The position numbers were made by a program, and so were the translations under genes. The notes below the pieces were generated by a model that saw only the letters and a program-made list of their open reading frames with translations, ran no database searches and was not told the DNA's origin. From NCBI RefSeq assembly GCF_019649055.1, contig NW_026570239.1, positions 1,240,001-1,304,000 on the forward strand: 64,000 nucleotides of DNA, given 5' to 3'. The DNA comes from Paramacrobiotus metropolitanus (lineage: Eukaryota; Tardigrada; Eutardigrada; Parachela; Macrobiotidae). Below, in pieces: positions 1-47,942 of this stretch; the first letter of the stretch is position 1; each line of letters starts with the position of its first letter.

Positions 1-3000
1 CCTTTTTCATATCCAGGTTTAAATCGTTTTCCATCACTTTCCGTTTGCGAGGGAATCGCTGATAATTTCTAGAATCATTAACAAAAGTTAACAACGATAT
101 CAAAGAAATCAAACGCTTCTTTAGAAAATGACGGCATTTTTTAAAGTCACATAAATTTCTAGTTTCGCATGGTTTTTCATTGACTATTGTGAGCAAAAGC
201 AACGCTGTGAGCTTCCGAGACCATTCAACTGAAGGCAACAACGTTGAAAAACACAACCCGGACTTTTGAAAAAAAGGACGGAATTTTTTCCTAGCAAGTG
301 AATTTCGAAATTCAAATGGTTTATCAATAAAGTTTGAGGCAAGATCAGTCCAGCGAGCTTTCGAGATCATACAACTTTAGGAAGCATAGTTAAAAATCAC
401 ATGCTGGAGTTCTCAAAACATTGACGGCATTTTTTTCTACGACCTGACATTTTCAAACAATAGCTAGTAGACGATAGTTCTTCAACTAATTTTTTCATAT
501 CCAGGTATGAATCATTTTCCATCACTTTCCGTTTGCGAGGGAACCGCTGATAATTTCTAAAATCAATAACAAAAGCAAACAACGTTATCGAAGATATCAC
601 ATGCTTCTTTAAAAAATGACGGTATGTTTTTGTATCACATACAGTTCTAGTTTCGCTGGTGTTTTTCAAATTTTAAATGGTGTTTCATTGACGTTTGACA
701 GCAAAATCAGTCCAGCAAGCTTCCGAGTTCATACAACTATAGGAAACATAGGTAAAAATCACATGCTGGATTTCGCAGAAAAAATGACAGCATTTTTTTC
801 TAGCCAGTGATTTTCCGGATTCAAATGGTGTTTCATTGACGTTTGACAGCAAAATCAGTTCCGCAAGCTTTCGAGATCATGCAACTATAGGAAACATAGG
901 CAAAAATCACATGCTGGATTTCGCAAAAAAATGACGGAATTTTTTTCTAGCAAGTGAATTTCAAAATTCAAGTGTTGGTTCAATGACTTTTGACAGCAAA
1001 ATCAGTCCAGCAAGCTTCTGAGATCACACAACAATATGAAACATAGTTATAACTCACATGCTGAAGTTTTCAAAAAAACGACAGCATTTTTTTCTACGAC
1101 CTGACATTTTAAGACTATGGCTAGTAGACGATAGTTGTTCAATTCCTTTTTTCATATCCAGGTATGAATCGTTTTCCATCACTTTCCGTTTGCGAGGGAA
1201 CCGCTGATAATTTCTAAAATCAATAACAAAAGCAAACAACGTTATCAAGGATATCACATGCTTCTTTAAAAAATGACGGCATTTTTTGGTGTCACATAAA
1301 TTTCTAGTTTCGCATGGTTTTTTGTTGGCGATTGTGTGCAAAAGCAACCCTGTGAGCTTCCGAGACCATTCAACTGCAGGTAACAACGTTGACAAACACA
1401 ATCGGACTTTTAAAAAAAATGACGGCATTTTTTCTAGCCAGTGATTTTCAAGATTCAAATGGTGATTCATTGACGTTTGACAGCAAAATCAGTCCAGCAA
1501 GCTTTCGAGATCATACAACAATAGAAAACATAGTTGGAAATCACATGCTGGAGTTCTCAAAAAAATGACGGCATTTTTTTCTCCGACCTGACATTTTAAG
1601 ACTATGGCTAGTAGACGTTAGTTATTTTAATTCCTTTTTTCATCTCCAGGGATGGATCGTTCTCCATCACTTTTCGTTTGCGAGGGAACCGCTAATATTT
1701 TCTAAAATCATCAACAAAAGCAAACAACGTTATCGAAGTTATCACATGCTTCTTTAAAAAATGACGGCATTTTTCGGTGTCACATAAATTTCTAGTTTCG
1801 CATGGTTTTTTGTTGGCGATTGTGTGCAAAAGCAACCCTGTGAGCTTCCGAGACCATTCAACTGCAGGTAACAACGTTGACAAACACAACCCGGACTTTT
1901 GAAAAAAATGACGGCATTTTTTTCTAGCCAGTGATTTTCAAGATTCAATTGGTGCTTCATTGACGTTTGACAGCAAAATCAGTTCAGCAAGCTTTCGAGA
2001 TCATACAACTATAGGAAACATAGGTAAAAATCACATGCTGGATTTCGCAAAAAAAATGACGGCATTTTTTTCTAGCAAGTGAATATCAAAATTCAAGTGT
2101 TGTTTCACTAACTTTCGACAGCAAAATCAGTCCAGCAAGCTTCCGAGATCATACAACAATAGGAAAAATAGTTAAAAATCACGTGCTGGAGTTCTCAAAA
2201 AAATGACAGCATTTTTTTCTCCGACCTGACATTTTAAGACTATGGCTAGTAGACGATAGTTGTTCAATTCCTTTTTTCATATCCAGGTATGAATCGTTTT
2301 CCATCACTTTTCGTTTGCGAGGGACCGCTGATAATTTCTAAAATCAATTACAAAAGCAAATAACATTGTCGAAGATATCACATGCTTCTTTAAAAAATGA
2401 CGGCATTATTGTATCACATAAATTTCTAGTTTCGCATGGTTTTTTGTTGACGATTGTGTCCAAAAGCAACCCTGTGAGCTTCCGAGACCATTCAACTGCA
2501 GGTAACAACGTTGAAAAACACAACCCGGACTTTTGAAAAAAATGACGGCATTTTTTTCTAGCCAGTGATTTTCAAGATTCAAATGGTGATTCATTGACGT
2601 TTGACAGCAAAATCAGTCCAGCAAGCTTTCGAGATCATACAACAATAGAAAACATAGTTGGAAATCACATGCTGGAGTTCTCAAAAAAATGACGGCATTT
2701 TTTTCTCCGACCTGACATTTTAAGACTATGGCTAGTAGACGTTAGTTATTTTAATTCCTTTTTTCATCTCCAGGGATGGATCGTTCTCCATCACTTTTCG
2801 TTTGCGAGGGAACCGCTAATATTTTCTAAAATCATCAACAAAAGCAAACAACGTTATCGAAGTTATCACATGCTTCTTTAAAAAATGACGGCATTTTTTG
2901 GTGTCACATAAATTTCTAGTTTCGCATGGTTTTTTGTTGGCGATTGTGTGCAAAAGCAACCCTGTGAGCTTCCGAGACCATTCAACTGCAGGTAACAACG

Positions 3001-4272
3001 TTGAAAAACACAACCCGGACTTTTGAAAAAAATGACGGCATTTTTTTCTAGCCAGTGATTTTCAAGATTTAAGTGGTGTTTCATTGACGTTTGACTGCAA
3101 AATCAGTTCCGCAAGCTTTCGAGATCATACAACTATAGGAAACATAGGTAAAAATCACATGCTGGATTTCGCAAAAAAAATGACGGCATTTTTTTCTAGC
3201 AAGTGAATATCAAAATTCAAGTGTTGTTTCACTAACTTTCGACAGCAAAATCAGTCCAGCAAGCTTCCGAGATCATACAACAATAGGAAAAATAGTTAAA
3301 AATCACGTGCTGGAGTTCTCAAAAAATGACAGCATTTTTTCTCCGACCTGACATTTTAAGACTATGGCTAGTAGACGATAGTTGTTCAATTCCTTTTTTC
3401 ATATCCAGGTATGAATCGTTTTCCATCACTTTCCGTTTGCGAGGAACCGCTGATAATTTCTAAAATCAATTACAAAAGCAAATAACATTGTCGAAGATAT
3501 CACATGCTTCTTTAAAAAATGACGGCATTATTGTATCACATAAATTTCTAGTTTCGCATGGTTTTTTGTTGACGATTGTGTCCAAAAGCAACCCTGTGAG
3601 CTTCCGAGACCATTCAACTGCAGGTAACAACGTTGACAAACACAATTCGGTCTTTTGAAAAAAATGACGGCATTTTTTCTAGCCAGTGATTTTCAAGATT
3701 CAAATGGTGTTTCATTGACGTTTGACAGCAAAATCAGCTCAGCAAGCTTTCGAGATCATACAACAATAAAAAACATTGTTAAAAATCACATGCTGGAGTT
3801 CTCAAAAAAATGACGGCATTTTTTTCTCCGACCTGACATTTTAAGACTATGGCTAGTAGACGATAGTTGTTCAATTCCTTTTTTCATATCCAGGTATGAA
3901 TCGTTTTCCATCATTTTCCGTTTGCAAGGGAACCGCTGATAATTTCTAAAATCAGTTACAAAAGCAAATAACATTGTCGAAGATATCACATGCTTCTTTA
4001 AAAAATGACGGCATTATTGTATCACATAAATTTCTAGTTCCGCATGGTTTTTTGTTGACGATTGTGTGCAAATGGAAACCCTGTGGTCTTCCGAGACCAT
4101 TCAACTGCAGGTAAAACCGTTGACAAACACAATTCGGACTTTTGAAAAAAATGACGGCATTTTTTCTAGCCAGTGATTTTCAAGATTCAAGTGTTGTTTC
4201 ATTAACTTTCGATAGCAAAATCAGTCCAGCGAGCTTCCGAGATCATACAACAATAGGAAACATAGTTAAAAA

Positions 4273-7200
4273 TCACATGCTGGAGTTCTCAAAAAAATGA
4301 CGGAATTTTTTTCTCCGACCTGACATTTTAAGACTATGGCTAGTAGACGATAGTTGTTCAATTCCTTTTTTCATATCCAGGTATGAATCGTTTTCCATCA
4401 CTTTCCGTTTGCGAGGGAACCGCTGATAATTTCTAAAATCAATTACAAAAGCAAATAACATTGTCGAAGATATCACATGCTTCTTTAAAAAATGACGGCA
4501 TTATTGTATCACATAAATTTCTAGTTTCGCATGGTTTTTTGTTGACGATTGTGTGCAAAAGCAACCCTGTGAGCTTCCGAGACCATTCAACTGCAGGTAA
4601 CAACGTTGACAAACACAATTCGGACTTTTGAAAAAAATGACGGCATTTTTTCTAGCCAGTGATTTTCAAGATTCAAATGGTGTTTCATTGACGTTTGACA
4701 GCAAAATCAGTTCAGCAAGCTTTCGAGATCATACAACAATAGAAAACATAGTTAGAAATCACATGCTGGAGTTCTCAAAAAAATGACGGCATTTTTTTCT
4801 CCGACCTGACATTTTAAGACTATGGCTAGTAGACGATAATTGTTCAATTCCTTTTTTCATATCCAGAAATGAATCGTTTTCCATCACTTTCTGGTTGCGA
4901 GGGAACCGCGGATAATTTCTAAAATCAATAACAAAAGCAAACAACGTTATCGAAGATATCACATGCTTCTTTAAAAAATGACGGAATTTTTTGTATCACA
5001 TAACTTTCTAGTTCCGCATGGTTTTTTGTTGACGATTGTGAGCAAATGGAAACCCTGTGAGCTTCCGAGACCATTCAACTGCAGGTAAACCGTTGACAAA
5101 CACAATTCGGACTTTTGAAAAAAATGACGGCATTTTTTCTAGCCAGTGATTTTCAAGATTCAATTGGTGCTTCATTGACGTTTGACAGCAAAATCAGTTC
5201 AGCAAGCTTTCGAGATCATACAACTATAGGAAACATAGGTAAAAATCACATGCTGGATTTCGCAAAAAAATCACGGCATTTTTTTCTAGCAAGTGAATTT
5301 CAAAATTCAAGTGTTGTTTCATTAACTTTCGACAGCAAAATCAGTCCAGCGAGCTTCCGAGATCATACAACAATAGGAAACATAGTTAAAAATCACATGC
5401 TGGAGTTCTCAAAAAAATGACGGAATTTTTTTCTCCGACCTGACATTTTAAGACTATGGCTAGTAGACGATAGTTGTTCAATTCCTTTTTTCATATCCAG
5501 GTATGAATCGTTTTCCATCACTTTCCGTTTGCAAGGGAACCGCTGATAATTTCTAAAATCAATAACAGCAAACAACGTTATCGAAGATATCACATGCTTC
5601 TTTAAAAAATGACGGCATTTTTTGTATCACATAACTTTCTAGTTCCGCATGGTTTTTTGTTGACGATTGTGAGCAAATGGAAACCCTGTGAGCTTCCGAG
5701 ACCATTCAACTGCAGGTAACAACGTTGACAAACACAATTCGGACTTTTGAAAAAAATGACGGCATTTTTTCTAGCCAGTGATTTTCAAGATTCAAATGGT
5801 GTTTCATTGACGTTTGACAGCAAAATCAGTTCAGCAAACTTTCGAGATCATACAACAATAGAAAACATAGTTAGAAATCACATGCTGGAGTTCTCAAAAA
5901 AATGACGGCACTTTTTTCTCCGACCTGACATTTTAAGACTATGGCTAGTAGACGATAATTGTTCAATTCCTTTTTTCATATCCAGGAATGAATCGTTTTC
6001 CATCACTTTCTGGTTGCGAGGGAACCGCGGATAATTTCTAAAATCAATAACAAAAGCAAACAACGTTATCGAAGATATCACATGCTTCTTTAAAAAATGA
6101 CGGCATTTTTTGTATCACATAACTTTCTAGTTCCGCATGGTTTTTTGTTGACGATTGTGAGCAAATGGAAACCCTGTGAGCTTCCGAGACCATTCAACTG
6201 CAGGTAAACCGTTGACAAACACAATTCGGACTTTTGAAAAAAATGACGGCATTTTTTCTAGCCAGTGATTTTCAAGATTCAATTGGTGCTTCATTGACGT
6301 TTGACAGCAAAATCAGTTCAGCAAGCTTTCGAGATCATACAACTATAGGAAACATAGGTAAAAATCACATGCTGGATTTCGCAAAAAAATCACGGCATTT
6401 TTTTCTAGCAAGTGAATTTCAAAATTCAAGTGTTGTTTCATTAACTTTCGACAGCAAAATCAGTCCAGCGGGCTTCCGAGATCATACAACAATAGGAAAC
6501 ATAGTTAAAAATCACATGCTGGAGTTCTCAAAAAAATGACGGAATTTTTTTCTCCGACCTGACATTTTAAGACTATGGCTAATAGACGATAGTTGTTCAA
6601 TTCCTTTTTTCATATCCAGGTATGAATCGTTTTCCATCACTTTCCGTTTGCAAGGGAACCGCTGATAATTTCTAAAATCAATAACAAAAGCAAACAACGT
6701 TATCGAAGATATCACATGCTTCTTTAAAAAATGACGGCATTTTTTGTATCACATAACTTTCTAGTTCCGCATGGTTTTTTGTTGACGATTGTGAGCAAAT
6801 GGAAACCCTGTGAGCTTCCGAGACCATTCAACTGCAGGTAACAACGTTGACAAACACAATTCGGACTTTTGAAAAAATGACGGCATTTTTTTCTAGCCAG
6901 TGATTTTCAAGATTCAAATGGTGTTTCATTGACGTTTGACAGCAAAATCAGTTCAGCAAACTTTCGAGATCATACAACAATAGAAAACATAGTTAGAAAT
7001 CACATGCTGGAGTTCTCAAAAAAATGACGGCACTTTTTTCTCCGACCTGACATTTTAAGACTATGGCTAGTAGACGATAATTGTTCAATTCCTTTTTTCA
7101 TATCCAGGAATGAATCGTTTTCCATCACTTTCTGGTTGCGAGGGAACCGCGGATAATTTCTAAAATCAATAACAAAAGCAAACAACGTTATCGAAGATAT

Positions 7201-8300
7201 CACATGCTTCTTTAAAAAATGACGGCATTTTTTGTATCACATAACTTTCTAGTTCCGCATGGTTTTTTGTTGACGATTGTGAGCAAATGGAAACCCTGTG
7301 AGCTTCCGAGACCATTCAACTGCAGGTAACAACGTTGACAAACACAATTCGGACTTTTGAAAAAAATGACGGCATTTTCTTCTAGCCAGTGATTTTCAAG
7401 ATTCAATTGGTGTTTCATTAACGTTTGACAGCAAAATCAGTTCAGCAGGCTTTCGAGATCATACAACTATAGAAAACATAGCTAAAAATCACATGCTGGA
7501 TTTCGCAAAAAAATCACGGCATTTTTTTCTAGCAAGTGAATTTCAAAATTCAAGTGTTGTTTCATTAACTTTCGACAGCAAAATCAGTCCAGCAAGCTTC
7601 CGAGATCATACAACAATAGGAAACATAGTTAAAAATCACATGCTGGAGTTCTCAAAAAAATGACGGAATTTTTTTCTCCGACCTGACATTTTAAGACTAT
7701 GGCTAATAGACGATAGTTGTTCAATTCCTTTTTTCATATCCAGGTATGAATCGTTTTCCATCACTTTCCGTTTGCAAGGGAACCGCTGATAATTTCTAAA
7801 ATCAATAACAAAAGCAAACAACGTTATCGAAGATATCACATGCTTCTTTAAAAAATGACGGCATTTTTTTGTATCACATAACTTTCTAGTTCACCATGGT
7901 TTTTTGTTGACGATTGTGTGCAAATGGAAACCCTGTGAGCCTCCGAGACCATTCAACTGCAGGTAACAACGTTGACAAACACAATTCGGACTTTTGAAAA
8001 AAATGACGGCATTTTCTTCTAGCCAGTGATTTTCAAGATTCAATTGGTGTTTCATTAACGTTTGACAGCAAAATCAGTTCAGCAGGCTTTCGAGATCATA
8101 CAACTATAGGAAACATAGCTAAAAATCACATGCTGGATTTCGCAAAAAAATCACGGCATTTTTTTCTAGCAAGTAAATTTCAAAATTCAAGTGTTGTTTC
8201 ATTAACTTTCGACAGCAAAATCAGTCCAGCAAGCTTCCGAGATCATACAACAATAGGAAACATAGTTAAAAAGCACATGCTGGAGTTCTCAAAAAAATGA
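4273..8300 (+). repeat. Higher-order repeat of about 1.12 kb
   Basis: Here an A-B-C unit (about 487 bp) alternates with an A-B-C-C' unit (about 635 bp). Equivalent A modules recur at offsets of 1,119 to 1,124 bp (for example near 4,759, 5,878 and 7,000, and near 5,393, 6,512 and 7,636). Each subset shares private variants: the A copies near 4,759, 5,878 and 7,000 share CTGGTTGCGAGGG and CCGCGGATAA, while those near 5,393, 6,512 and 7,636 share CCGTTTGCAAGGG. This is the signature of amplification of a multi-module unit rather than of single monomers. Confidence 0.9.
4783..5417 (+). repeat. Representative A-B-C-C' unit of the array
   Basis: This copy shows the module boundaries clearly, measured from one ATGACGG-type linker to the next: A from 4,783 to 4,978 (195 bp), B from 4,978 to 5,124 (146 bp), C from 5,124 to 5,270 (146 bp), C' from 5,270 to 5,417 (147 bp). 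The C to C' linker carries the variant ATCACGGCATT instead of ATGACGGCATT. B and C are related to each other: both have CTAG near the start, TTGACG followed by an AGCAAA block, then AGCTTCCGAGA followed by CAT or CCATTCAAC, and an AT-rich end. A shares with C only the end region (ATCACATGCT, then TTCT and the A-tract). Confidence 0.9.
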
Positions 8301-9179
8301 CGGCATTTTTTTCTCCGACCTGACAGTTTAAGACTATGGCTAGTAGACGATAGTTGTTCAATTCCTTTTTTCATATCCAGGAATGAATCGTTTTCCATCA
8401 CTTTCCGGTTGCGAGGGAACCGCTGATAATTTCTAAAATCAATAACAAAAGCAAACAACGTTATCGAAGATATCACATGCTTCTTTAAAAAATGACGGCA
8501 TTTTTTGTATCACATAATTTTCTAGTTCTGCATGGTTTTTTGTTGACGATTGTGTGCAAATGGAAACCCTGTGAGCTTCGGAGACCATTCAACTGCAGGT
8601 AAAACCGTTGACAAACACAATTCGGACTTTTGAAAAAAATGACGGCATTTTTTCTAGCCAGTGATTTTCAAGATTCAAATGGTGTTTCATTGACGTTTGA
8701 CAGCAAAATCAGTTCAGCAAGCTTTCGAGATCATACAACAATAGAAAACATAGTTAGAAATCACATGCTGGAGTTCTCAAAAAAATGACGGCATTTTTTT
8801 CTCCGACCTGACAGTTTAAGACTATGGCTAGTAGACGATAGTTGTTCAATTCCTTTTTTCATATCCAGGAATGAATCGTTTTCCATCACTCTCCGGTTGC
8901 GAGGGAACCGCTGATAATTTCTAAAATCAATAACAAAAGCAAGCAACGTTATCAAAGATATCACATGCTTCTTTAAAAAATGACGGCATTTTTTTGTATC
9001 ACATAACTTTCTAGTTCACCCTGATTTTTTGTTGACGATTGTGTGCAAATGGAAACCCTGTGAGCCTCCGAGACCATTCAACTGCAGGTAAAACCGTTGA
9101 CAAACACAATTCGGACTTTTAAAAAAAATGACGGCATTTTCTTCTAGCCAGTGATTTTCAAGATTCAATTGGTGTTTAA

Positions 9180-11230
9180 TTGACGTTTGATAGCAAAATC
9201 AGTTCAGCAAGCTTTCGAGATCATACAACTATAGGAAACATAGGTAAAAATCACATGCTGGATTTCGCAAAAAAATCAAGGCATTTTTTTCTAGCAATTG
9301 AATTTCAAAATTCAAGTGTTGTTTCATTAACTTTCGACAGCAAAATCAGTTCAGCAAGCTTTCGAGATAATACAACAATAGAAAACATAGTTAGAAATCA
9401 CATGCTGGAGTTCTCAAAAAATGACGGCATTTTTTTCTCCGACCTGACAGTTTAAGACTATGGCTAGTAGACGATAGTTGTTCAATTCCTTTTTCATATC
9501 CAGGAATGAATCGTTTTCCATCACTCTCCGGTTGCGAGGAACCGCTGATAATTTCTAAAATCAATAACAAAAGCAAGCAACGTTATCGAAGATATCACAT
9601 GCTTCTTTAAAAAATGACGGCATTTTTTGTATCACATAACTTTCTAGTTCACCATGGTTTTTGTTGACGATTGTGTGCAAATGGAAACCCTGTGAGCCTC
9701 CGAGACCATTCAACTGCAGGTAACAACGTTGACAAACACAATTCGGACTTTTGAAAAAATGACGGCATTTTTCTTCTAGCCAGTGATTTTCAAGATTCAA
9801 TTGGTGTTTCATTGACGTTTGACAGCAAAATCAGTTCAGCAGGCTTTCGAGATCATACAACAATAGGAAACATAGCTAAAAATCACATGCTGGATTTCGC
9901 AAAAAATCACGGCATTTTTTTCTAGCAAGTGAATTTCAAAATTCAAGGGTTGTTTCATTAACTTTCGACAGCAAAATCAGTCCAGCAAGCTTCCGAGATC
10001 ATACAACAATAGGAAACATAGTTAAAAATCACATGCTGGAGTTCTCAAAAAAATGACGGCATTTTTTTCTCCGACCTGACAGTTTAAGACTATGGCTAGT
10101 AGACGATAGTTGTTCAATTCCTTTTTTCATATCCAGGAATGAATCGTTTTCCATCACTTTCCGGTTGCGAGGAACCGCTGATAATTTCTAAAATCAATAA
10201 CAAAAGCAAACAACGTTATCGAAGATATCACATGCTTCTTTAAAAAATGACGGCATTTTTTGTATCACATAATTTTCTAGTTCTGCATGGTTTTTTGTTG
10301 ACGATTGTGTGCAAATGGAAACCCTGTGAGCTTCGGAGACCATTCAACTGCAGGTAAAACCGTTGACAAACACAATTCGGACTTTTAAAAAAAATGACGG
10401 CATTTTCTTCTAGCCAGTGATTTTCAAGATTCAATTGGTGTTTAATTGACGTTTGATAGCAAAATCAGTTCAGCAAGCTTTCGAGATCATACAACTATAG
10501 GAAACATAGCTAAAAATCACATGCTGGATTTCGCAAAAAAATCACGGCATTTTTTTCTAGCAAGTGAATTTCAAAATTCAAGTGTTGTTTCATTAACTTT
10601 CGACAGCAAAATCAGTCCAGCAAGCTTCTGAGATCATACAACAATAGGAAACATAGCTAAAAATCACATGCTGGATTTCGCAAAAAAATCACGGCATTTT
10701 TCTCTAGCAAGTGAATTTCCAAATTCAAGTGTTGTTTCATTAACTTTCGACAGCAAAATCAGCCCAGCAAGCTTCTGAGATCATACAACAATAGGAAACA
10801 TAGCTAAAAATCACATGTTGGAGTTCCCAAAAAAATGACGGCATTTTTTTCTCCGACCTGACAGTTTAAGACTATGGCTAGTAGACGATAGTTGTTCAAT
10901 TCCTTTTTTCATATCCAGGAATGAATCGTTTTCCATCACTTTCCGGTTGCGAGAAACCGCTGATAATTTCTAAAATCAATAACAAAAGCAAACAACGTTA
11001 TCGAAGATATCACATGCTTCTTTAAAAAATGACGGCATTTTTTGTATCACATAACTTTCTAGTTCTGCATGGTTTTTTGTTGACGATTGTGTGCAAACGG
11101 AAACCCTGTGAGCTTCGGAGACCATTCAACTGCAGGTAGAACCGTTGACAAACACGATTCGGACTTTTGAAAAAAATGACGGCATTTTCTTCTAGCCAGT
11201 GATTTTCAAGATTCAATTGGTGTTTCATTG
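9180..11230 (+). repeat. Array segment duplicated 7.7 kb away (copy 1)
   Basis: The segment matches about 16,893-18,950 at a constant offset of 7,713 to 7,719 bp, with the same order of variant modules. Shared rare variants include AATTGACGTTTGATAGC near 9,180 and 16,893, TCTCTAGCAAG near 10,700 and 18,420, CATGTTGGAGTTCCC near 10,815 and 18,535, and a gapped A module GTTGCGAGAAACC near 10,945 and 18,665. A few differences exist, for example CAAGGGTTG against CAAGTGTTG. Ends are approximate. Confidence 0.75.
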
Positions 11231-11272
11231 ACGTTTGATAGCAAAATCAGTTCAGTAAGCTTTCGAGATCAT

Positions 11273-18950: not shown

Positions 18951-21900
18951 GTTTGATAGCAAAATCAGTTCAGTAAGCTTTCGAGATCATACAACTATAG
19001 GAAACATAGGTAAAAATCACATGCTGGATTTCGCAAAAAAATCACGGCATTTTTTTCTAGCAAGTGAATTTCAAAGTTAAAGTGTTGTTTCATTAACTTT
19101 CGACAGCAAAATCAGTCCAGCAAGCTTCTGAGATCATACAACAATAGGAAACATAGCTTAAAATCACATGCTGGATTTCGCAAAAAAATCACGGCATTTT
19201 TTTCTAGCAAGTGAATTTCAAAATTCAAGTGTTGTTTCATTAACTTTCGACAGCAAAATCAGTCCAGCAAGCTTCTGAGATCATACAACAATAAGAAACA
19301 TAGCTAAAAATCACATGCTGGAGTTCTCAAAAAAATGACGGAATTTTTTTCTCCGACCTGACAGTTTAAGACTATGGCTAGTAGACGATAGTTGTTCAAT
19401 TCCTTTTTTCATATCCAGGAATGAATCGTTTTCCATCACTTTCCGGTTGCGAGAAACCGCTGATAATTTCTAAAATCAATAACAAAAGCAAACAACGTTA
19501 TCGAAGATATCACATGCTTCTTTAAAAAATGACGGCATTTTTTGTATCACATAACTTTCTAGTTCTGCATGGTTTTTTGTTGACGATTGTGTGCAAACGG
19601 AAACCCTGTGAGCTTCGGAGACCATTCAACTGCAGGTAGAACCGTTGACAAACACGATTCGGACTTTTGAAAAAAATGACGGCATTTTCTTCTAGCCAGT
19701 GATTTTCAAGATTCAATTGGTGTTTAATTGACGTTTGATAGCAAAATCAGTTCAGCAAGCTTTCGAGATCATACAACTATAGGAAACATAGCTAAAAATC
19801 ACATGCTGGATTTCGCAAAAAAATCACGGCATTTTTTTCTAGCAAGTGAATTTCAAAATTCAAGTGTTGTTTCATTAACTTTCGACAGCAAAATCAGTCC
19901 AGCAAGCTTCTGAGATCATACAACAATAGGAAACATAGCTAAAAATCACATGCTGGATTTCGCAAAAAAATCACGGCATTTTTCTCTAGCAAGTGAATTT
20001 CCAAATTCAAGTGTTGTTTCATTAACTTTCGACAGCAAAATCAGCCCAGCAAGCTTCTGAGATCATACAACAATAGGAAACATAGCTAAAAATCACATGT
20101 TGGAGTTCCCAAAAAATGACGGCATTTTTTCTCCGACCTGACAGTTTAAGACTATGGCTAGTAGACGATAGTTGTTCAATTCCTTTTTCATATCCAGGAA
20201 TGAATCGTTTTCCATCACTTTCCGGTTGCGAGAAACCGCTGATAATTTCTAAAATCAATAACAAAAGCAAACAACGTTATCGAAGATATCACATGCTTCT
20301 TTAAAAAATGACGGCATTTTTTTGTATCACATAACTTTCTAGTTCTTTATGGTTTTTTGTTGACGATTGTGTGCAAATGGAAACCCTGTGAGCTTCGGAG
20401 ACCATTCAACTGCAGGTAAAACCGTTGACAAACACAATTCGGACTTTTGAAAAAAATGACGACATTTTCTTCTAGCCAGTGATTTTCAAGATTCAATTGG
20501 TGTTTCATTGACGTTTGACAGCAAAATCAGTTCAGCAAGCTTTCGAGATCATACAACAATAGAAAACATAGTTAGAAATCACATGCTGGAGTTCTCAAAA
20601 AATGACGGCATTTTTTTCTCCGACCTGACATTTTAAGACTATGGCTAGTAGACGATAGTTGTTCAATTCCTTTTTTCATATCCAGGAATGAATCGTTTTC
20701 CATCACTTTCCGGTTGCGAGGAACCGCTTATAATTTTAAAATCAATAACAAAAGCAAGCAACGTTATCGAAGATATCACATGCTTCTTTAAAAAATGACG
20801 GCATTTTTTTGTATCACATAACTTTCTAGTTCTTTATGGTTTTTTGTTGACGATTGTGTGCAAATGGAAACCCTGTGAGCTTCGGAGACCATTCAACTGC
20901 AGGTAAAACCGTTGACAAACACAATTCGGACTTTTGAAAAAAATGACGACATTTTCTTCTAGCCAGTGATTTTCAAAATTCAAGTGTTGTTTCACTAACT
21001 TTCGACAGCAAAATCAGTCCAGCAAGCTTCCGAGATCATACAACAATAGGAAAAATAGTTAAAAATCACGTGCTGGAGTTCTCAAAAAAATGACGGAATT
21101 TTTTTCTCCGACCTGACAGTTTAAGACTATGGCTAATAGACGATAGTTGTTCAATTCCTTTTTTCATATCCAGGAATGAATCGTTTTCCATCACTTTCCG
21201 GTTGCGAGGGAACCGCTGATAATTTCTAAAATCAATAACAAAAGCAAGCAACGTTATCGAAGATATCACATGCTTCTTTAAAAAATGACGGCATTTTTTT
21301 GTATCACATAACTTTCTAGTTCTTTATGGTTTTTTGTTGACGATTGTGTGCAAATGGAAACCCTGTGAGCTTCGGAGACCATTCAACTGCAGGTAAAACC
21401 GTTGACAAACACAATTCGGACTTTTGAAAAAAATGACGACATTTTCTTCTAGCCAGTGATTTTCAAGATTCAATTGGTGTTTCATTGACGTTTGACAGCA
21501 AAATCAGTTCAGCAAGCTTTCGAGATCATACAACAATAGAAACATAGTTAGAAATCACATGCTGGAGTTCTCAAAAAATGACGGCATTTTTTCTCCGACC
21601 TGACATTTTAAGACTATGGCTAGTAGACGATAGTTGTTCAATTCCTTTTTCATATCCAGGAATGAATCGTTTTCCATCACTTTCCGGTTGCGAGGGAACC
21701 GCTTATAATTTTAAAATCAATAACAAAAGCAAACAACGTTATCGAAGATATCACATGCTTCTTTAAAAATGACGGCATTTTTTTGTATCACATAACTTTC
21801 TAGTTCACCATGGTTTTTTGTTGACGATTGTGTGCAAATGGAAACCCTGTGAGCCTCCGAGACCATTCAACTGCAGGTAACAACGTTGACAAACACAATT

Positions 21901-24059
21901 CGGACTTTTGAAAAAATGACGGCATTTTCTTCTAGCCAGTGATTTTCAAGATTCAATTGGTGTTTCATTAACGTTTGACAGCAAAATCAGTTCAGCAAGC
22001 TTTCGAGATCATACAACTATAGGAAACATAGCTAAAAATCACATGCTGGAGTTTCGCAAAAATCACGGCATTTTTTTCTAGCAAGTGAATTTCAAAATTC
22101 AAGTGTTGTTTCATTAACTTTCGACAGCAAAATCAGTCCAGCAAGCTTCCGAGATCATACAACAATAGGAAACATAGTTAAAAATCACATGCTGGAGTTC
22201 TCAAAAAAATGACGGCATTTTTTTCTCCGACCTGACATTTTAAGACTATGGCTAGTAGACGATAGTTGTTCAATTCCTTTTTCATATCCAGGAATGAATC
22301 GTTTTCCATCACTTTCCGGTTGCGAAGGAACCGCTGATAATTTCTAAAATCAATAACAAAAGCAAACAACGTTATCGAAGATATCACATCCTTCTTTAAA
22401 AAATGACGGCATTTTTTGTATCACATAACTTTCTAGTTCTGCATGGTTTTTTGTTGACGATTGTGTGCAAATGGAAACCCTGTGAGCTTCGGAGACCATT
22501 CAACTGCAGGTAAAACCGTTGACAAACACAATTCGGACTTTTGAAAAAAATGACGGCATTTTCTTCTAGCCAGTGATTTTCAAGATTCAATTGGTGTTTC
22601 ATTGACGTTTGACAGCAAAATCAGTTCAGCAAGCTTTCGAGATCATACAACAATAGAAAACATAGTTAGAAATCACATGCTGGAGTTCTCAAAAAAATGA
22701 CGGCATTTTTTTCTCCGACCTGACATTTTAAGACTATGGCTAGTAGACGATAGTTGTTCAATTCCTTTTTTCATATCCAGGAATGAATCGTTTTCCATCA
22801 CTTTCCGGTTGCGAGGGAACCGCTTATAATTTTTAAAATCAATAACAAAAGCAAGCAACGTTATCGAAGATATCACATGCTTCTTTAAAAAATGACGGCA
22901 TTTTTTTGTATCACATAACTTTCTAGTTCACCATGGTTTTTTGTTGACGATTGTGTGCAAATGGAAACCCTGTGAGCCTCGAGACCATTCAACTGCAGGT
23001 AACAACGTTGACAAACACAATTCGGACTTTTGAAAAAAATGACGGCATTTTCTTCTAGCCAGTGATTTTCAAGATTCAATTGGTGTTTCATTAACGTTTG
23101 ACAGCAAAATCAGTTCAGCAGGCTTTCGAGATCATACAACTATAGGAAACATAGCTAAAAATCACATGCTGGATTTCGCAAAAAAATCACGGCATTTTTT
23201 TCTAGCAAGTGAATTTCAAAATTCAAGTGTTGTTTCATTAACTTTCGACAGCAAAATCAGTCCAGCAAGCTTCCGAGATCATACAACAATAGGAAACATA
23301 GTTAAAAATCACATGCTGGAGTTCTCAAAAAATGACGGCATTTTTTCTCCGACCTGACAGTTTAAGACTATGGCTAGTAGACGATAGTTGTTCAATTCCT
23401 TTTTTCATATCCAGGAATGAATCGTTTTCCATCACTTTCCGGTTGCGAAGGAACCGCTGATAATTTCTAAAATCAATAACAAAAGCAAACAACGTTATCG
23501 AAGATATCACATCCTTCTTTAAAAAATGACGGCATTTTTTGTATCACATAACTTTCTAGTTCTGCATGGTTTTTTGTTGACGATTGTGTGCAAATGGAAA
23601 CCCTGTGAGCTTCGGAGACCATTCAACTGCAGGTAAAACCGTTGACAAACACAATTCGGACTTTTGAAAAAAATGACGGCATTTTCTTCTAGTCAGTGAT
23701 TTTCAAGATTCAATTGGTGTTTCATTGACGTTTGACAGCAAAATCAGTTCAGCAAGCTTTCGAGATCATACAACAACAGGCAACATAGTTAAAACTCACA
23801 TGCTGGAGTTCTCAAAACAATGACGGCATTTTTTTCTAGCAAGTGAATTTCAAAATTCAAGTGTTGTTTCATTAATTTTCGACAGCAAAAACAGTCCAGC
23901 AAGCTTCTGAGATCATACAACAATAGGAAACATAGCTAAAAATCACATGCTGGAGTTCTCAAAAAAATGACGGCATTTTTTTCTCCGACCTGACAGTTTA
24001 AGACTATGGCTAGTAGACGATAGTTGTTCAATTCCTTTTTTCATATCCAGGAATGAATC

Positions 24060-24960
24060 GTTTTCCATCACTTTCCGGTTGCGAGGGAACCGCTGATAAT
24101 TTCTAAAATCAATAACAAAAGCAAACAACGTTATCGAAGATATCACATGCTTCTTTGAAAAATGACGGCATTTTTTGTATCACATAACTTTCTAGTTCCG
24201 CATGGTTTTTTGTTGACGATTGTGTGCAAATGGAAACCCTGTGAGCTTCCGAGACCATTCAACTGCAGGTAACAACGTTGACAAACACAATTCGGACTTT
24301 TGAAAAAAATAACGGCATTTTCGTCTAGCCAGTGATTTTCAAGATTGAATTGGTGTTTCATTGACGTTTGACAGCAAAATCAGTTTAGCAAGCTTTCGAG
24401 ATCATACAACAACAGGCAACATAGTTAAAACTCACATGCTGGAGTTCTCAAAACAATGACGGCATTTTTTTCTAGCAAGTGAATATCAAAATTCAAGTGT
24501 TGTTTCACTAACTTTCGACAGCAAAATCAGTCCAGCAAGCTTCCAAGATCATACAACAATAGGAAACATAGTTAAAAATCACATGCTGGAGTTCTCAAAA
24601 AAATGACGGCATTTTATTCTCCGACCTGACATTTTAAGACTATGGCTAGTAGACGATAGTTGTTCAATTCCTTTTTTCATATCCAAGTATAAATCGTTCT
24701 CCATCACTTTCCGTTTGCGAGGGAACCGCTGATAATTTCTAAAATCAATAACAAAAGCAAACAACGTTATCGAAGATATCACATGCTTATTTAAAAAATG
24801 ACGGCATTTTTTGTATCACATAACTTTCTAGTTCCGCATGGGTTTTGTTGACGATTGTGTGCAAAAGCAACCCTGTGAGCTTCCGAGACCATTCAACTGC
24901 AGGTAACAACGTTGACAAACACAATTCGGACTTTTGAATAAAAACACGGCATTTTTTCTA
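24060..24960 (+). repeat. Array segment duplicated 6.35 kb away (copy 1; copy 2 at about 30,410-31,310)
   Basis: The two segments share, at an offset of 6,352 bp, a run of rare variants: TTCTTTGAAAAATGA, AATAACGGCATTTTCGTC, ACAACAACAGGCAACATAG, GACGGCATTTTATTCTCC, CCAAGTATAAATCGTTCTCC, CTTATTTAAAAAATG and CGCATGGGTTTTGTTGAC. Each of these is absent or rare elsewhere in the array, so the shared set shows common descent of the block rather than chance. Confidence 0.8.
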
Positions 24961-27900
24961 GCCAGTGATTTTCAAGATTCAAATGGTGTTTCATTGACGT
25001 TTGACAGCAAAATCAGTTTAGCAAGCTTTCGAGATCATACAACAATAGAAAACATAGTTAGAAATCACATGCTGGAGTTTTCAAAAAAATGACGGCATTT
25101 TTTTCTCCGACCTGACAGTTTAAGACTATGGCAAGTAGATGATAGTTGTTCAATTCCTTTTTTCATATCCAGGTATGAATCGTTTTCCATCACTTTCCGT
25201 TTGCGAGGGAACCGCTGATAATTTCTAAAATCAATAACAAAAGCAAGCAACGTTATCGAAGATATGACATGCTTCTTTAAAAAATGACGGCATTTTTTTG
25301 TATTACATAACTTTCTAGTTCTTTATGGTTTTTTGTTGACGATTGTGTGCGAATGGAAACCCTACGAGCTTCGGAGACCATTCAACTGCAGGTAAAACCG
25401 TTGACAAACACAATTCGGACTTTTGAAAAAAATGACGGCATTTTCTTCTAGCCAGTGATTTTCAAGATTCAATTGGTGTTTCATTGACGTTTGATAGCAA
25501 AATCAGTTCAGTAAGCTTTCGAGATCATACAACTATAGGAAACATAGGTAAAAATCACATGCTGGATTTCGCAAAAAAATCACGGCATTTTTTTCTAGCA
25601 AGTGAATTTCAAAATTAAAGTGTTGTTTCATTAACTTTCGACAGCAAAATCAGTCCAGCAAGCTTCTGAGATCATACAACAATAGGAAACATAGCTAAAA
25701 ATCACATGCTGGATTTCGCAAAAAAATCACGGCATTTTTTTCTAGCAAGTGAATTTCAAAATTCAAGTGTTGTTTCATTAATTTTCGACAGCAAAAACAG
25801 TCCAGCAAGCTTCTGAGATCATACAACAATAGGAAACATAGCTAAAAATCACATGCTGGAGTTCTCAAAAAAATGACGGAATTTTTTTCTCCGACCTGAC
25901 AGTTTAAGACTATGGCTAGTAGACGATAGTTGTTCAATTCCTTTTTTCATATCCAATAATGAATCGTTTTCCATCACTTTCCGGTTGCGAGGGAACCGCT
26001 GATAATTTCTAAAATCAATAACAAAAGCAAACAACGTTATCGAAGATATCACATGCTTCTTTAAAAAATGACGGCATTTTTTGTATCACATAACTTTCTA
26101 GTTCCGCATGGTTTTTTGTTGACGATTGTGTGCAAATGGAAACCCTGTGAGCTTCGGAGACCATTCAACTGCAGGTAAAACCGTTGACAAACACAATTCG
26201 GACTTTTGAAAAAAATGACGACATTTTCTTCTAGCCAGTGATTTTCAAGATTCAATTGGTGTTTCATTGACGTTTGACAGCAAAATCAGTTCAGCAAGCT
26301 TTCGAGATCATACAACAATAGAAAACATAGTTAGAAATCACATGCTGGAGTTCTCAAAAAAATGACGGCATTTTTTTCTCCGACCTGACATTTTAAGACT
26401 ATGGCTAGTAGACGATAGTTGTTCAATTCCTTTTTTCATATCCAGGAATGAATCGTTTTCCATCACTTTCCGGTTGCGAGGGAACCGCTTATAATTTTTA
26501 AAATCAATAACAAAAGCAAACAACGTTATCGAAGATATCACATGCTTCTTTGAAAAATGACGGCATTTTTTGTATCACATAACTTTCTAGTTCACCATGG
26601 TTTTTTGTTGACGATTGTGTGCAAATGGAAACCCTGTGAGCCTCCGAGACCATTCAACTGCAGGTAACAACGTTGACAAACACAATTCGAACTTTTGAAA
26701 AAAATGACGGCATTTTCTTCTAGCCAGTGATTTTCAAGATTCAATTGGTGTTTCATTAACGTTTGACAGCAAAATCAGTTCAGCAGGCTTTCGAGATCAT
26801 ACAACTATAGGAAACATAGCTAAAAATCACATGCTGGATTTCGCAAAAAAATCACGGCATTTTTTTCTAGCAAGTGAATTTCAAAATTCAAGTGTTGTTT
26901 CATTAACTTTCGACAGCAAAATCAGTCCAGCAAGCTTCCGAGATCATACAACAATAGGAAACATAGTTAAAAATCACATGCTGGAGTTCTCAAAAAAATG
27001 ACGGCATTTTTTTCTCCGACCTGACAGTTTATGACTATGGCTAGTAGACGATAGTTGTTCAATTCCTTTTTTCATATCCAGGAATGAATCGTTTTCCATC
27101 ACTTTCCGGTTGCGAAGGAACCGCTGATAATTTCTAAAATCAATAACAAAAGCAAACAACGTTATCGAAGATATCACATGCTTCTTTAAAAAATGACGGC
27201 ATTTTTTGTATCACATAATTTTCTAGTTCTGCATGGTTTTTTGTTGACGATTGTGTGCAAATGGAAACCCTGTGAGCTTCGGAGACCATTCAACTGCAGG
27301 TAAAACCGTTGACAAACACAATTCGGACTTTTGAAAAAAATGACAGCATTTTCTTCTAGCCAGTGATTTTCAAGATTCAATTGGTGTTTCATTGACGTTT
27401 GATAGCAAAATCAGTTCAGCAAGCTTTCGAGATCATACAACTATAGGAAACATAGGTAAAAATCACATGCTGGATTTCGCAAAAAAATCACGGCATTTTT
27501 TTCTAGCAAGTGAATTTCAAAATTAAAGTGTTGTTTCATTAACTTTCGACAGCAAAATCAGTCCAGCAAGCTTCTGAGATCATACAACAATAGGAAACAT
27601 AGCTAAAAATCACATGCTGGATTTCGCAAAAAAATCACGGCATTTTTTTCTAGCAAGTGAATTTCAAAATTCAAGTGTTGTTTCATTAACTTTCGACAGC
27701 AAAATCAGTCCAGCAAGCTTCCGAGATCATACAACAATAGGAAACATAGTTAAAAATCACATGCTGGAGTTCTCAAAAAAATGACGGCATTTTTTTCTCC
27801 GACCTGACAGTTTAAGACTATGGCTAGTAGACGATAGTTGTTCAATTCCTTTTTTCATATCCAGGAATGAATCGTTTTCCATCACTTTCCGGTTGCGAGG

Positions 27901-28919
27901 GAACCGCTGATAATTTCTAAAATCAATAACAAATGCAAACAGCGTTATCGAAGATATCACATGCTTCTTTAAAAAATGACGGAATTTTTTGTATCACATA
28001 ATTTTCTAGTTCTGCATGGTTTTTTGTTGACGATTGTGTGCAAATGGAAACCCTGTGAGCTTCGGAGACCATTCAACTGCAGGTAAAACCGTTGACAAAC
28101 ACAATTCGGACTTTTGAAAAAAATGACAGCATTTTCTTCTAGCCAGTGATTTCAAGATTGAATTGGTGTTTCATTGACGTTTGATAGCAAAATCAGTTCA
28201 GCAAGCTTTCGAGATCATACAACTATAGGAAACATAGGTAAAAATCACATGCTGGATTTCGCAAAAAAATCACGGCATTTTTTTCTAGCAAGTGAATTTA
28301 AAAATTAAGTGTTGTTTCATTAACTTTCGACAGCAAAATCAGTCCAGCAAGCTTCTGAGATCATACAACAATAGGAAACATAGCTAAAAAATCACATGCT
28401 GGATTTCGCAAAAAATCACGGCATTTTTTCTAGCAAGTGAATTTCAAAATTCAAGTGTTGTTTCATTAACTTTCGACAGCAAAATCAGTCCAGCAAGCTT
28501 CTGAGATCATACAACAATAGGAAACATAGCTAAAAATCACATGCTGGAGTTCTCAAAAAAATGACGGAATTTTTTTCTCCGACCTGACATTTTAAGACTA
28601 TGGCTAGTAGACGATAGTTGGTCAATTCCTTTTTTCATATCCAGGTATGAATCGTTTTCCATCACTTTCCGTTTGCGAGGGAACCGCTGATAATTTCTAA
28701 AATCAATTACAAAAGCAAATAACATTGTCGAAGATATCACATGCTTCTTTAAAAAATGACGGCATTTTTTGTATCACATAACTTTCTAGTTCTGCATGGT
28801 TTTTTGTTGACGATTGTGTGCAAATGGAAACCCTGTGAGCTTCGGAGACCATTCAACTGCAGGTAAAACCGTTGACAAACACAATTCGGACTTTTGAAAA
28901 AAATGACGGCATTTTCTTC

Positions 28920-30520
28920 TAGTCAGTGATTTTCAAGATTCAATTGGAGTTTCATTGACGTTTGACAGCAAAATCAGTTCAGCAAGCTTTCGAGATCATA
29001 CAACAACAGGCAACATAGTTAAAACTCACATGCTGGACTTCTCAAAACAATGACGGCATTTTTTTCTAGCAAGTGAATTTCAAAATTCAAGTGTTGTGTC
29101 ATTAACTTTCGACAGCAAAATCAGTTCAGCAAGCTTTCGAGATCATACAACTATAGGAAACATAGTTAGAAATCACATGCTGGAGTTCTCAAAAAAATGA
29201 CGGCATTTTTTTCTCCGACCTGACAGTTTAAGACTATGGCTAGTAGACGATAGTTGTTCAATTCCTTTTTTCATATCCAGGAATGAATCGTTTACCATCA
29301 CTTTCCGGTTGCGAGGGAACCGCTGATAATTTCTAAAATCAATAACAAAAGCAAACAGCGTTATCGCAGATATCACATGCTTCTTTGAAAAATGATGGCA
29401 TTTTTTGTATCACATAAATTTCTAGTTTCGCATGGTTTTTTGTTGACGATTGTGTGCAAAAGCAACCCTGTGAGCTTCCGAGACCATTCAACTGCAGGTA
29501 ACAACGTTGACAAACACAATTCGGACTTTTGAAAAAAATGACGGCATTTTTTCTAGCCAGTGATTTTCAAGATTCAAATGGTGTTTCATTGACGTTTGAC
29601 AGCAAAATCAGTTCAGCAAGCTTTCGAGATCATACAACTATAGGAAACATAGTTAGAAATCACATGCTGGAGTTCTCAAAAAAATGACGGCATTTTTTTC
29701 TCCGACCTGACAGTTTAAGACTATGGCTAGTAGACGATAGTTGTTCAATTCCTTTTTCATATCCAGGAATGAATCGTTTTCCATCACTTTCCGGTTGCGA
29801 AGGAACCGCTGATAATTTCTAAAATCAATAACAAAAGCAAACAACGTTATCGAAGATATCACATCCTTCTTTAAAAAATGACGGCATTTTTTGTATCACA
29901 TAACTTTCTAGTTCTGCATGGTTTGTTGTTGACGATTGTGTGCAAATGGAAACCCTGTGAGCTTCGGAGACCATTCAACTGCAGGTAAAACCGTTGACAA
30001 ACACAATTCGGACTTTTGAAAAAAATGACGGCATTTTCTTCTAGTCAGTGATTTTCAAGATTCAATTGGAGTTTCATTGACGTTTGACAGCAAAATCAGT
30101 TCAGCAAGCTTTCGAGATCATACAACAACAGGCAACATACTTAAAACTCACATGCTGGACTTCTCAAAACAATGACGGCATTTTTTTCTAGCAAGTGAAT
30201 GTCAAAATTCAAGTGTTGTTTCACTAACTTTCGACAGCAAAATCAGTCCATCAAGCTTCCGAGATCATACAACAATAGGAAACATAGTTAAAAATCACAT
30301 GCTGGAGTTCTCAAAAAAATGACGGCATTTTTTTCTCCGACCTGACAGTTTAAGACTATGGCTAGTAGACGATAGTTGTTCAATTCCTTTTTTCATATCC
30401 AGGAATGAATCGTTTACCATCACTTTCCGGTTGCGAGGGAACCGCTGATAATTTCTAAAATCAATAACAAAAGCAAACAACGTTATCGCAGATATCACAT
30501 GCTTCTTTGAAAAATGATGG
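28920..30520 (+). repeat. Direct duplication of a variant block, period about 1,122 bp
   Basis: The blocks at about 28,920-29,400 and 30,040-30,520 share the rare forms TCTAGTCAGTGATTTTC, CAATTGGAGTTTC, CATGCTGGACTTCTC, CGTTTACCATCAC, GTTATCGCAGATATC and AATGATGGCATTTT. The period equals the 1.12-kb higher-order unit seen at 4.3-8.3 kb, so the same unit length is used in two distant parts of the array. Confidence 0.8.
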
Positions 30521-32051
30521 CATTTTTTGTATCACATAACTTTCAAGTTCCGCATGGTTTTTTATTGACGATTGTGTGCAAATGGAAACCCTGTGAACTT
30601 CCGAGACCATTCAACTGCAGGAAACAACGTTGACAAACACAATTCGGACTTTTGAAAAAAATAACGGCATTTTCGTCTAGCCAGTGATTTTCAAGATTCA
30701 ATTGGTGTTCCATTGACGTTTGACAGCAAAATCAGTTTAGCAAGCTTTCGAGATCATACAACAACAGGCAACATAGTTAAAACTCACATGCTGGAGTTCT
30801 CAAAACAATGACGGCATTTTTTTCTAGCAAGTGAATATCAAAATTCAAGTGTTGTTTCACTAACTTTCGAATGCAAAATCAGTCCAGCAAGCTTCCGAGA
30901 TCATACAACAATAGGAAACATAGTTAAAAATCACATGCTGGAGTTCTCAAAAAAATGACGGCATTTTATTCTCCGACCTGACATTTTAAGACTATGGCTA
31001 GTAGACGATAGTTGTTCAATTCCTTTTTTCATATCCAAGTATAAATCGTTCTCCATCACTTTCCGTTTGCGAGGGAACCGCTGATAATTTCTAAAATCAA
31101 TAACAAAAGCAAACAACGTTATCGAAGATATCACATGCTTATTTAAAAAATGACGGCATTTTTTGTATCACATAACTTTCTAGTTCCGCATGGGTTTTGT
31201 TGACGATTGTGTGCAAAAGCAACCCTGTGAGCTTCCGAGACCATTCAACTGCAGGTAAAACCGTTGACAAACACAATTCGGACTTTTGAAAAAAATGACG
31301 GCATTTACTTCTAGCCAGTGATTTTCAAGATTCAATTGGTGTTTCATTGACGTTTGACAGCAAAATCAGTTCAGCAAGCTTTCGAGATCATACAACAATA
31401 GGTAACATAGTTAAAAATCACATGCTGGAGTTCTCAAAAAAATGACGGCATTTTTTTCTAGCAAGTGAATATCAAAATTCAAGTGTTGTTTCACTAACTT
31501 TCGACAGCAAAATCAGTTCAGCAAGCTTCCGAGATCATACAACAATAGGAAACATAGTTAAAAATCACATGCTGGAGATCTCAAAAAAATGACGGCATTT
31601 TTTTCTCCGACCTGACATTTTAAGACTATGGCTAGTAGATGATAGTTGTTCAATTCCTTTTTTCATATCCAGGTATGAATCGTTTTCCATCACTTTCCGT
31701 TTGCGAGGGAACCGCTGATAATTTCTAAAATCAATAACACAAGCAAGCAACGTTATCGAAGATATGACATGCTTCTTTAAAAAATGACGGCATTTTTTTG
31801 TATTACATAACTTTCTAGTTCTTTATGGTTTTTTGTTGACGATTGTGTGCAAATGGAAACCCTGTGAGCTTCGGAGACCATTCAACTGCAGGTAAAACCG
31901 TTGACAAACACAATTCGGACTTTTGAAAAAAATGACGGCATTTACTTCTAGCCAGTGATTTTCAAGATTCAAATGGTGTTTCATTGACGTTTGACAGCAA
32001 AATCAGTTCAGCAAGCTTCCGAGATCATACAACAATAGGAAAAATCACATG

Positions 32052-47871: not shown

Positions 47872-47942
<71 letters not shown>

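What the first reader, a model, noticed from the sequence alone, without database searches (positions are those of the whole stretch)
1..32040. Quantised satellite architecture: anchor A plus a variable count of nucleosome-length monomers
Distances between successive A modules fall on about 487, 634, 781 and 927 bp, that is 195 + 146 n with n = 2 to 5. B and C are 146-147 bp, the length of nucleosomal core DNA. The array therefore looks like a chain of nucleosome-sized monomers punctuated by a longer, unrelated A module. The module lengths and spacing are seen; the link to nucleosome phasing is inference.
Basis: partly seen in the sequence, partly recalled or inferred. Interest (0 to 1): 0.72.

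Follow-up and report, generated by a model that had tools for sequence, protein, structure and literature searches.

The report
Modular tardigrade satellite with shared box
A 38-kilobase run of repeated DNA in what is very probably a tardigrade genome is built from blocks that all meet at the same short near-palindromic sequence, which also occurs in a second, different-looking repeat family; the stepwise spacing comes from gaining or losing whole blocks, and nothing in the sequence ties it to nucleosomes.

Summary
The stepwise spacing is real. Cutting 1-32,060 at the linker gives 200 modules: 51 A (191-196 bp) and 149 others, 145-148 bp except one of 168. Of 50 A-to-A distances, 49 lie within 8 bp of 195 + 146.8n, n = 2-5. 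The others form an ordered series B, c, d (rarely e): a higher-order repeat A-B-c-d. Copy number varies almost only in c/d/e, which are 86-95% alike, as unequal exchange predicts. Two points fail: A is not unrelated (its tail resembles B, c and d in register), and no 10-bp nucleosome signal exceeds shuffles. The genome is very probably Paramacrobiotus metropolitanus. The array spans 37.75 kb; every A, B and C probe hit lies there. Unexpected is the linker, a near-palindromic 20-bp box: 252 in the genome, 190 in the window, 60 in a second, 58-60-bp satellite family, 2 unplaced. Closest precedent: box-sharing satellites of Meloidogyne (PMC3694981). Within module classes the box is not consistently more conserved than the rest, so a present function is unproven.

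The parts
1..32048 (+). main block of the satellite, head to tail, mostly A-B-c-d with c/d copy-number variants
   Evidence: 200 modules from 125 on; left edge lies 190 bp outside the window
4294..4488 (+). example of module A (195 bp)
   Evidence: reference copy used
4489..4633 (+). example of module B (145 bp)
   Evidence: reference copy used
4634..4779 (+). example of module c (146 bp)
   Evidence: reference copy used
5267..5413 (+). example of module d (147 bp)
   Evidence: reference copy used
10685..10831 (+). example of module e (147 bp), one of 5 copies
   Evidence: reference copy used
1268..1287 (+). one exact copy of the box AAAAAATGACGGCATTTTTT at a module boundary
   Evidence: the 22-mer with seven A and seven T equals its reverse complement at 20 of 22 positions
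32049..33096 (-). inverted block of the same modules
   Evidence: blastn of module consensus sequences
33162..33995 (+). direct block, starting in a truncated A
33999..34606 (-). second inverted block; its best match to the first inverted block has many gaps
34631..37564 (+). diverged right edge with truncated A (consensus positions 1-138) and truncated B (1-43) modules

Best explanation
This is a single-locus, higher-order satellite array (37.75 kb) in a genome that is very probably that of the tardigrade Paramacrobiotus metropolitanus. Shown: its repeat unit is four modules, A-B-c-d; unit lengths step by whole modules because c/d/e modules are gained or lost; A carries a tail that resembles the other modules in register. 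Inferred: the array grows and is homogenised by unequal exchange and segmental duplication, and c and d change in number because they are alike enough (90%) to pair out of register, whereas A and B are not. Shown: module boundaries carry a near-palindromic box of about 20 bp that also recurs in a second, 58-60-bp satellite family elsewhere in the genome. Inferred: the box was an old joining or seeding point at which unlike pieces were spliced into a common repeat. Whether a protein binds it today is open. Nucleosome phasing is not needed for any of this.
For: Module order and transitions: A to B 50, B to c 47, c to d 35, d to A 33, c to A 13, d to d 6, d to e 5, e to A 5, B to d 3, A to c 1, c to c 1; never A-A or B-B. 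Consensus identities c-d 0.90, d-e 0.95, c-e 0.86, B-c 0.68, A-B 0.53. Near-identical A copies at shared lags (about 1,120, 1,270, 6,352 and 7,718 bp) suggest block duplications. Single locus: 52 of 52 A hits, 97 of 97 C hits and 55 of 55 B hits at C19 (up to 3 mismatches). Tail resemblance: A-B 22 of 41 columns, 0 of 2,000 shuffles. Truncated A and B modules at the right edge. Box: 252 copies with up to 1 mismatch, 0 of the reversed control; 250 placed: window 190, C318 53, C24 4, C88 3. Organism: assembly size close to that of Paramacrobiotus sp. TYO and both published TPS-TPP-2 primer gene parts within 3.7 kb on C84, forward exact and reverse sought with up to 1 mismatch.
Against: If exchange needs long homology, the few odd units (Accd once, ABd twice) need another route. 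The array (37.75 kb) is longer than the ONT read N50 of about 17 kb given in PMC11191345 (passage), so its long-range order may be partly an assembly product. Within a module class the box core is not consistently less variable than the body: A 0.0431 against 0.0249, d 0.0455 against 0.0323, B 0.0157 against 0.0423, c 0.0208 against 0.0383, so nothing shows present constraint. A-B bodies do not align above shuffles without the in-register constraint (271 of 500). Homology of the two satellite families beyond the box was not demonstrated, so how they came to share it is inference.
Confidence: 0.8

Rival explanations
1. The box is a present-day protein-binding site, CENP-B-box style, kept by selection in several satellite families, and the arrays serve chromatin or centromere function.
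For: Two families with dissimilar bodies share the box; it is near-palindromic, 20 of 22 positions; across classes A, B, c it is the one block identical right after the cut, with nothing beyond; nematode precedent with boxes at monomer junctions (PMC3694981, abstract and section 13).
Against: Within classes A and d the box core varies more than the body. It does not resemble the human CENP-B box: 7 of 17, and 452 of 500 shuffles do as well or better; the best match anywhere in the unit is 11 of 17, which 220 of 500 shuffles reach. 250 of 252 box copies lie at four loci, and the window array sits 2.9 kb from a serpin reading frame.
Confidence: 0.12
2. Nucleosome-phased satellite: each 147-bp module holds one nucleosome and the box marks the gap.
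For: Module lengths 145-148 bp; most satellite repeat units are said to be of nucleosomal length or 5-10 bp (PMC8122249, abstract passage); A and T runs at the box could disfavour nucleosomes (recalled).
Against: No 10-bp signal above shuffles in the A-B-c-d consensus (441 of 500) or in A (396), B (289), c (106) or d (461 of 500) alone; 147-bp spacing leaves no linker; the other family carrying the box has 58-60-bp monomers.
Confidence: 0.06
3. Transposon-derived array: internal tandem repeats of a Helitron-like or other mobile element, expanded at one locus.
For: The 60-bp family is dispersed as small arrays and remnants; C24 and C318 share a flank of about 94 bp with one mismatch next to their arrays; Helitron-borne tandem repeats are known (PMC10048060, passages).
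Against: In the flanks compared (about 84 kb from six loci), those of the window array match those of the other box loci only in five stretches of 37-155 bp (66-86% identical), all between its left flank and C318, more than 5 kb from the array. No transposon domain in 10 flank ORFs (of 45 listed; C19 left flank, C318, C88 only) or 7 window ORFs (of 37 listed) given to Pfam.
Confidence: 0.15
4. Long-range order, inversions and some unit variants are nanopore assembly artefacts (can hold together with the best explanation).
For: Array 37.75 kb against read N50 of about 17 kb; the best match of 33,999-34,600 to the first inverted block has 65 gaps in 663 columns.
Against: Unit structure holds over 51 units with flanking sequence on both sides in the contig, and the module order is regular; many A copies are 99-100% alike at repeated lags.
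Confidence: 0.2

Closest known systems
Meloidogyne chitwoodi / M. fallax satellites with Box 1 and Box 2 (PMC3694981)
   Same: Several divergent satellite monomers in one genome share a short conserved box, junctions between unlike monomers fall at it, and higher-order arrays are built from them.
   Different: Box sequence is not CENP-B-like; here one array is a single locus with strictly ordered modules, and within classes the box is not the least variable part.
Alpha-satellite higher-order repeats of primates (organisation as in PMC8122249 passages)
   Same: Diverged monomers in fixed order form a longer unit whose copies are close to identical.
   Different: 37.75 kb at one locus, one module of a different length (195 bp), no centromere evidence.
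Meloidogyne holocentromere repeats sharing a 19-bp box (Despot-Slade et al. 2021; title seen in a reference list only; paper not held)
   Same: Different tandem repeats unified by a short box.
   Different: Association with a centromere histone is stated in that title; here it is untested.

Membership tests
Higher-order-repeat satellite DNA | Tandem, head-to-tail repetition | tested here: met
   200 modules in 1-32,060
Higher-order-repeat satellite DNA | Monomers within a unit diverged, units close to each other | tested here: met
   consensus A-B 0.53, B-c 0.68, c-d 0.90 against mean identity among copies A 0.956, B 0.937, c 0.942, d 0.943
Higher-order-repeat satellite DNA | Unit variants differ by whole monomers | tested here: met
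   49 of 50 A-to-A distances on the lattice
Box-sharing satellites (Meloidogyne type) | Short motif shared by otherwise dissimilar satellites in one genome | tested here: met
   box in C19 and in the 58-60-bp family; linker-masked comparisons: 11 of 12 reached by 8 or more of 100 shuffles, B against C88 by 1 of 100; only 2 kb of the C318 array was used
Box-sharing satellites (Meloidogyne type) | Motif sits at junctions between unlike monomers | tested here: met
   A/B, B/c, c/d, d/A and c/A consensus junctions all contain it, with one changed base before d
Box-sharing satellites (Meloidogyne type) | Motif is a domain of low variability across the different monomers | tested here: met
   A, B and c consensus identical over AAAATGACGGCATTTT and at 1 of the last 40 columns of the 60 compared. 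Within single classes the box is not consistently less variable
Box-sharing satellites (Meloidogyne type) | Motif resembles the CENP-B box (Box 1) | tested here: not met
   7 of 17, no better than shuffles
Nucleosome-phased satellite | About 10-bp dinucleotide periodicity above background | tested here: not met
   441 of 500 shuffles score as high or higher
Nucleosome-phased satellite | Phased nucleosomes in MNase maps | not testable with these tools
   no such data held
Centromeric satellite | CENP-A or kinetochore protein enrichment | not testable with these tools
   no ChIP data held
Helitron-type element with internal tandem repeats | Rep/helicase or other transposon gene, or shared element ends, at the array | tested here: inconclusive
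   no transposon domain in 10 of 45 listed flank ORFs and 7 of 37 window ORFs; C24 and C318 share a short flank

The most novel reading that the evidence does not exclude
The near-palindromic box is the target of a tardigrade DNA-binding protein, perhaps domesticated from a transposase, that marks a set of otherwise unrelated satellites for centromere or heterochromatin assembly. The box arrays would then be sequence-defined chromatin domains of a tardigrade, evolved independently of the CENP-B box. The within-class variability argues against this but does not exclude it.
Probability: 0.06. Interest if true: 0.75.

Novelty: new member of a known kind. Interest (0 to 1): 0.38.

Why it matters
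Three literature searches listed no paper on a tardigrade satellite as far as titles and abstract starts show, and term searches in the two Paramacrobiotus genome papers found 'satellite' 0 times. So this may be an early described case, and both edges of the array are assembled. A box shared by two different-looking satellites, outside nematodes, gives a second place to ask whether such boxes are protein-binding sites or scars of how satellites are put together; the within-class test here leans towards scars. If a binding protein were found, it would open the DNA of tardigrade centromeres to direct test.

Tried and rejected
Nucleosome positioning by 10-bp WW/SS periodicity: nothing above shuffles. 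Box as CENP-B box: rejected. Box from a virus: 0 exact matches in viral contigs. Structured RNA or tRNA genes in the window: none at Rfam gathering scores, none by ARAGORN. Telomere words TTAGGC x6 and GATGGGTTTT x3 (recalled motifs): 0 in the assembly, so no help in naming the organism. Homology of the 58-60-bp family to the modules outside the box: 11 of 12 linker-masked comparisons unremarkable, one (B against C88) at 1 of 100 shuffles; anchored alignment upstream of the box gave 44 (A), 46 (B), 135 (c) and 23 (d) of 1,000 shuffles, inconclusive. Whole-unit DNA search of the genome was not scored because of too many candidates, so single-locus status rests on pattern probes. The place lists were capped. 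The first classifier merged B with c/d and was replaced. The 168-bp module was left out of the class c alignment (48 of 49 used); the 5 e copies were left out of the periodicity, conservation and tail tests. The four-way column count shuffles c and d as if independent although they are 90% alike, so I lean on the pairwise counts.
Full report
WHAT THE WINDOW IS. The window is bases 1,240,001-1,304,000 of contig C19 of an unnamed 169,799,020-bp assembly in 533 contigs. Paramacrobiotus sp. TYO was published as 170,483,395 bp in 684 scaffolds (PMC8277472, passages); the same paper prints primers for its TPS-TPP-2 gene (passage). The gene part of the forward primer occurs exactly once in the assembly, at C84:81,675. 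The reverse-primer part, sought with up to one mismatch, lies about 3.65 kb downstream. I take the organism to be that tardigrade (P. metropolitanus) or a very close relative; an 18S search did not complete.

THE OBSERVATION. Cutting 1-32,060 at the linker (up to 3 mismatches) gives 200 modules. Scored against five reference copies they fall into A (51; 191-196 bp, 31 of exactly 195), B (51), c (49), d (44) and e (5); the 149 non-A modules are 145-148 bp except one of 168 bp. Of 50 A-to-A distances, 15, 26, 7 and 2 correspond to n = 2, 3, 4 and 5, and 49 of 50 lie within 8 bp of 195 + 146.8n; continuous distances would give 11.6%.

HOW IT IS ORGANISED. The modules are ordered. The units are ABcd 25, ABc 13, ABcdd 4, ABcde 3, ABd 2, ABcdde 2, Accd 1 and one cut unit, AB (51 in all). 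A-A and B-B never occur. The classes that change in number, c, d and e, are the ones that resemble each other (consensus identity 0.86-0.95), while A-B is 0.53 and B-c 0.68. This is what unequal exchange between similar neighbours would do; a 20-bp linker alone seems not to suffice, since A and B hold their number (inference). Copies of A average 95.6% identity, and many have a 98-100% partner, often at shared lags near 1,120, 1,270, 6,352 and 7,718 bp, as block duplication would leave.

A IS NOT UNRELATED. In the 41 columns before the box, counted in register, A matches B at 22 (11.7 in shuffles, 0 of 2,000), c at 22 (1 of 2,000) and d at 24 (0 of 2,000); 16 columns are the same in all four (1.4 in shuffles, 0 of 2,000, a count that treats the related c and d as independent). 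In the next 20 columns B matches c and d but A matches none above shuffles. The stretch after the box shows 1 four-way column in 41; columns 60-100 show 5 against 0.7 expected, not pursued. A free local alignment of linker-trimmed bodies found A-d (0 of 500), A-e (2) and A-c (8 of 500) but not A-B (271 of 500). In the diverged right edge, A copies cut at position 138 and B copies cut at 43 recur. I read A as a composite of a private front part and a shared tail.

EXTENT. Module similarity begins at C19:1,239,811, 190 bp before the window, and ends at window 37,564, 37.75 kb in all. From 32,049 on the modules are more diverged and partly inverted. The second inverted block (33,999-34,606) matches the first with many gaps: 33,999-34,600 to 32,432-33,090 at 83.1% with 65 gaps in 663 columns, and 33,991-34,294 to 32,041-32,348 at 91.9%. 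Probes for A, B and C with up to 3 mismatches hit only this locus: 52 of 52, 55 of 55 and 97 of 97.

THE BOX. Module boundaries carry A6-7 TGACGGCA T5-7, with one changed base in most d copies. The 22-mer form equals its own reverse complement at 20 of 22 positions. The 20-mer with up to one mismatch occurs 252 times in the genome, the reversed control never. Of these, 190 are in the window, 53 on C318:1-30,000, 4 on C24 and 3 on C88, leaving 2 unplaced. C318, C24 and C88 hold a different satellite of 58-60-bp monomers, with remnants on C25 and C458 and one weak hit on C171 (capped list). With linkers masked, 11 of 12 comparisons of module bodies with stretches of this family (1.2 kb of C24, 2 kb of C318, 3.3 kb of C88) were unremarkable and one (B against C88) reached 1 of 100 shuffles; extended similarity upstream of the box is inconclusive.

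IS THE BOX UNDER CONSTRAINT? Not shown. Mean minor frequency in the ten core columns against the body: A 0.0431 and 0.0249, d 0.0455 and 0.0323, B 0.0157 and 0.0423, c 0.0208 and 0.0383. In d a changed base has become the majority. So the box is conserved between classes and families but not consistently within classes. I favour an old joining point over a site in present use. It is not like the CENP-B box (7 of 17) and has no exact match in viral contigs.

NUCLEOSOMES. WW/SS periodicity of 9.8-10.8 bp in the A-B-c-d consensus is below the shuffle mean (441 of 500 as high or higher), and none of A, B, c, d stands out, c being highest with 106 of 500. Modules of 147 bp end to end leave no linker DNA, and the other family with the same box has 58-60-bp monomers. 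The match to 147 bp fits the general statement that satellite repeats are often of nucleosomal length (PMC8122249, abstract passage); it is no evidence of phasing.

PRECEDENT. In Meloidogyne, divergent satellites share a 17-bp Box 1 and a 20-bp Box 2, and transitions between unlike monomers fall at those boxes (PMC3694981, abstract and section 13 read). Works like: yes. Member: in part. Sharing, junction position and low variability across monomers were met; CENP-B likeness was tested and not met. The searches 'tardigrade + satellite DNA' (12 papers), the same with tandem repeats and telomer (2 papers) and the box letters (0 papers) showed no report of this satellite in the titles and abstract starts listed; I searched inside PMC11071193 and, for the word satellite, PMC11191345 and PMC8277472, and saw only listings of the rest.

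LIMITS. The array is longer than the read N50 of about 17 kb (PMC11191345, passage), so long-range order may contain assembly error. Pattern probes find close relatives only. No chromatin data were available.

Noticed in passing
L026-L028 (C318:1 to about 26,430): About 26 kb of a 58-60-bp satellite with the same box, running off the contig start; a perfect palindrome AAACATCGATGTTT recurs in this family (seen by eye).
   Followed up: partly
L030:5735-10000 (C24): A different satellite of about 346-bp period lies directly beside the 60-bp box array and runs to the end of the fetched stretch.
   Followed up: no
L030:4343-4436 and L028 near 6486: C24 and C318 share a flank of about 94 bp with one mismatch next to their 60-bp arrays, suggesting dispersal as a unit.
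   Followed up: partly
window 33,999-34,606: Second inverted block; best match to the first inverted block has 65 gaps in 663 columns, which could be decay or unpolished nanopore sequence.
   Followed up: partly
window 40,418-41,563 (-): Serpin open in one frame over 381 aa, 2.9 kb from the array edge (Pfam PF00079, 5.4e-44).
   Followed up: no
window 47,867-48,334 (+) and 61,424-62,327 (+): Trypsin-like frame beginning in an ATTT microsatellite (47,846-47,978), and two frames with parts of a TLDc domain.
   Followed up: no
L023:1376-5047 (+): Stop-free frame of 1,223 aa about 15 kb upstream of the array with no Pfam match at 0.001.
   Followed up: no
L024:7074-7760 (+) and L029:5170-6618 (-): F-box match (5.1e-05) left of the array and a leucine-rich-repeat match below its cut-off on C318.
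   Followed up: no
whole assembly G000: No TTAGGC x6 and no GATGGGTTTT x3 tracts; telomere sequence not identified.
   Followed up: no
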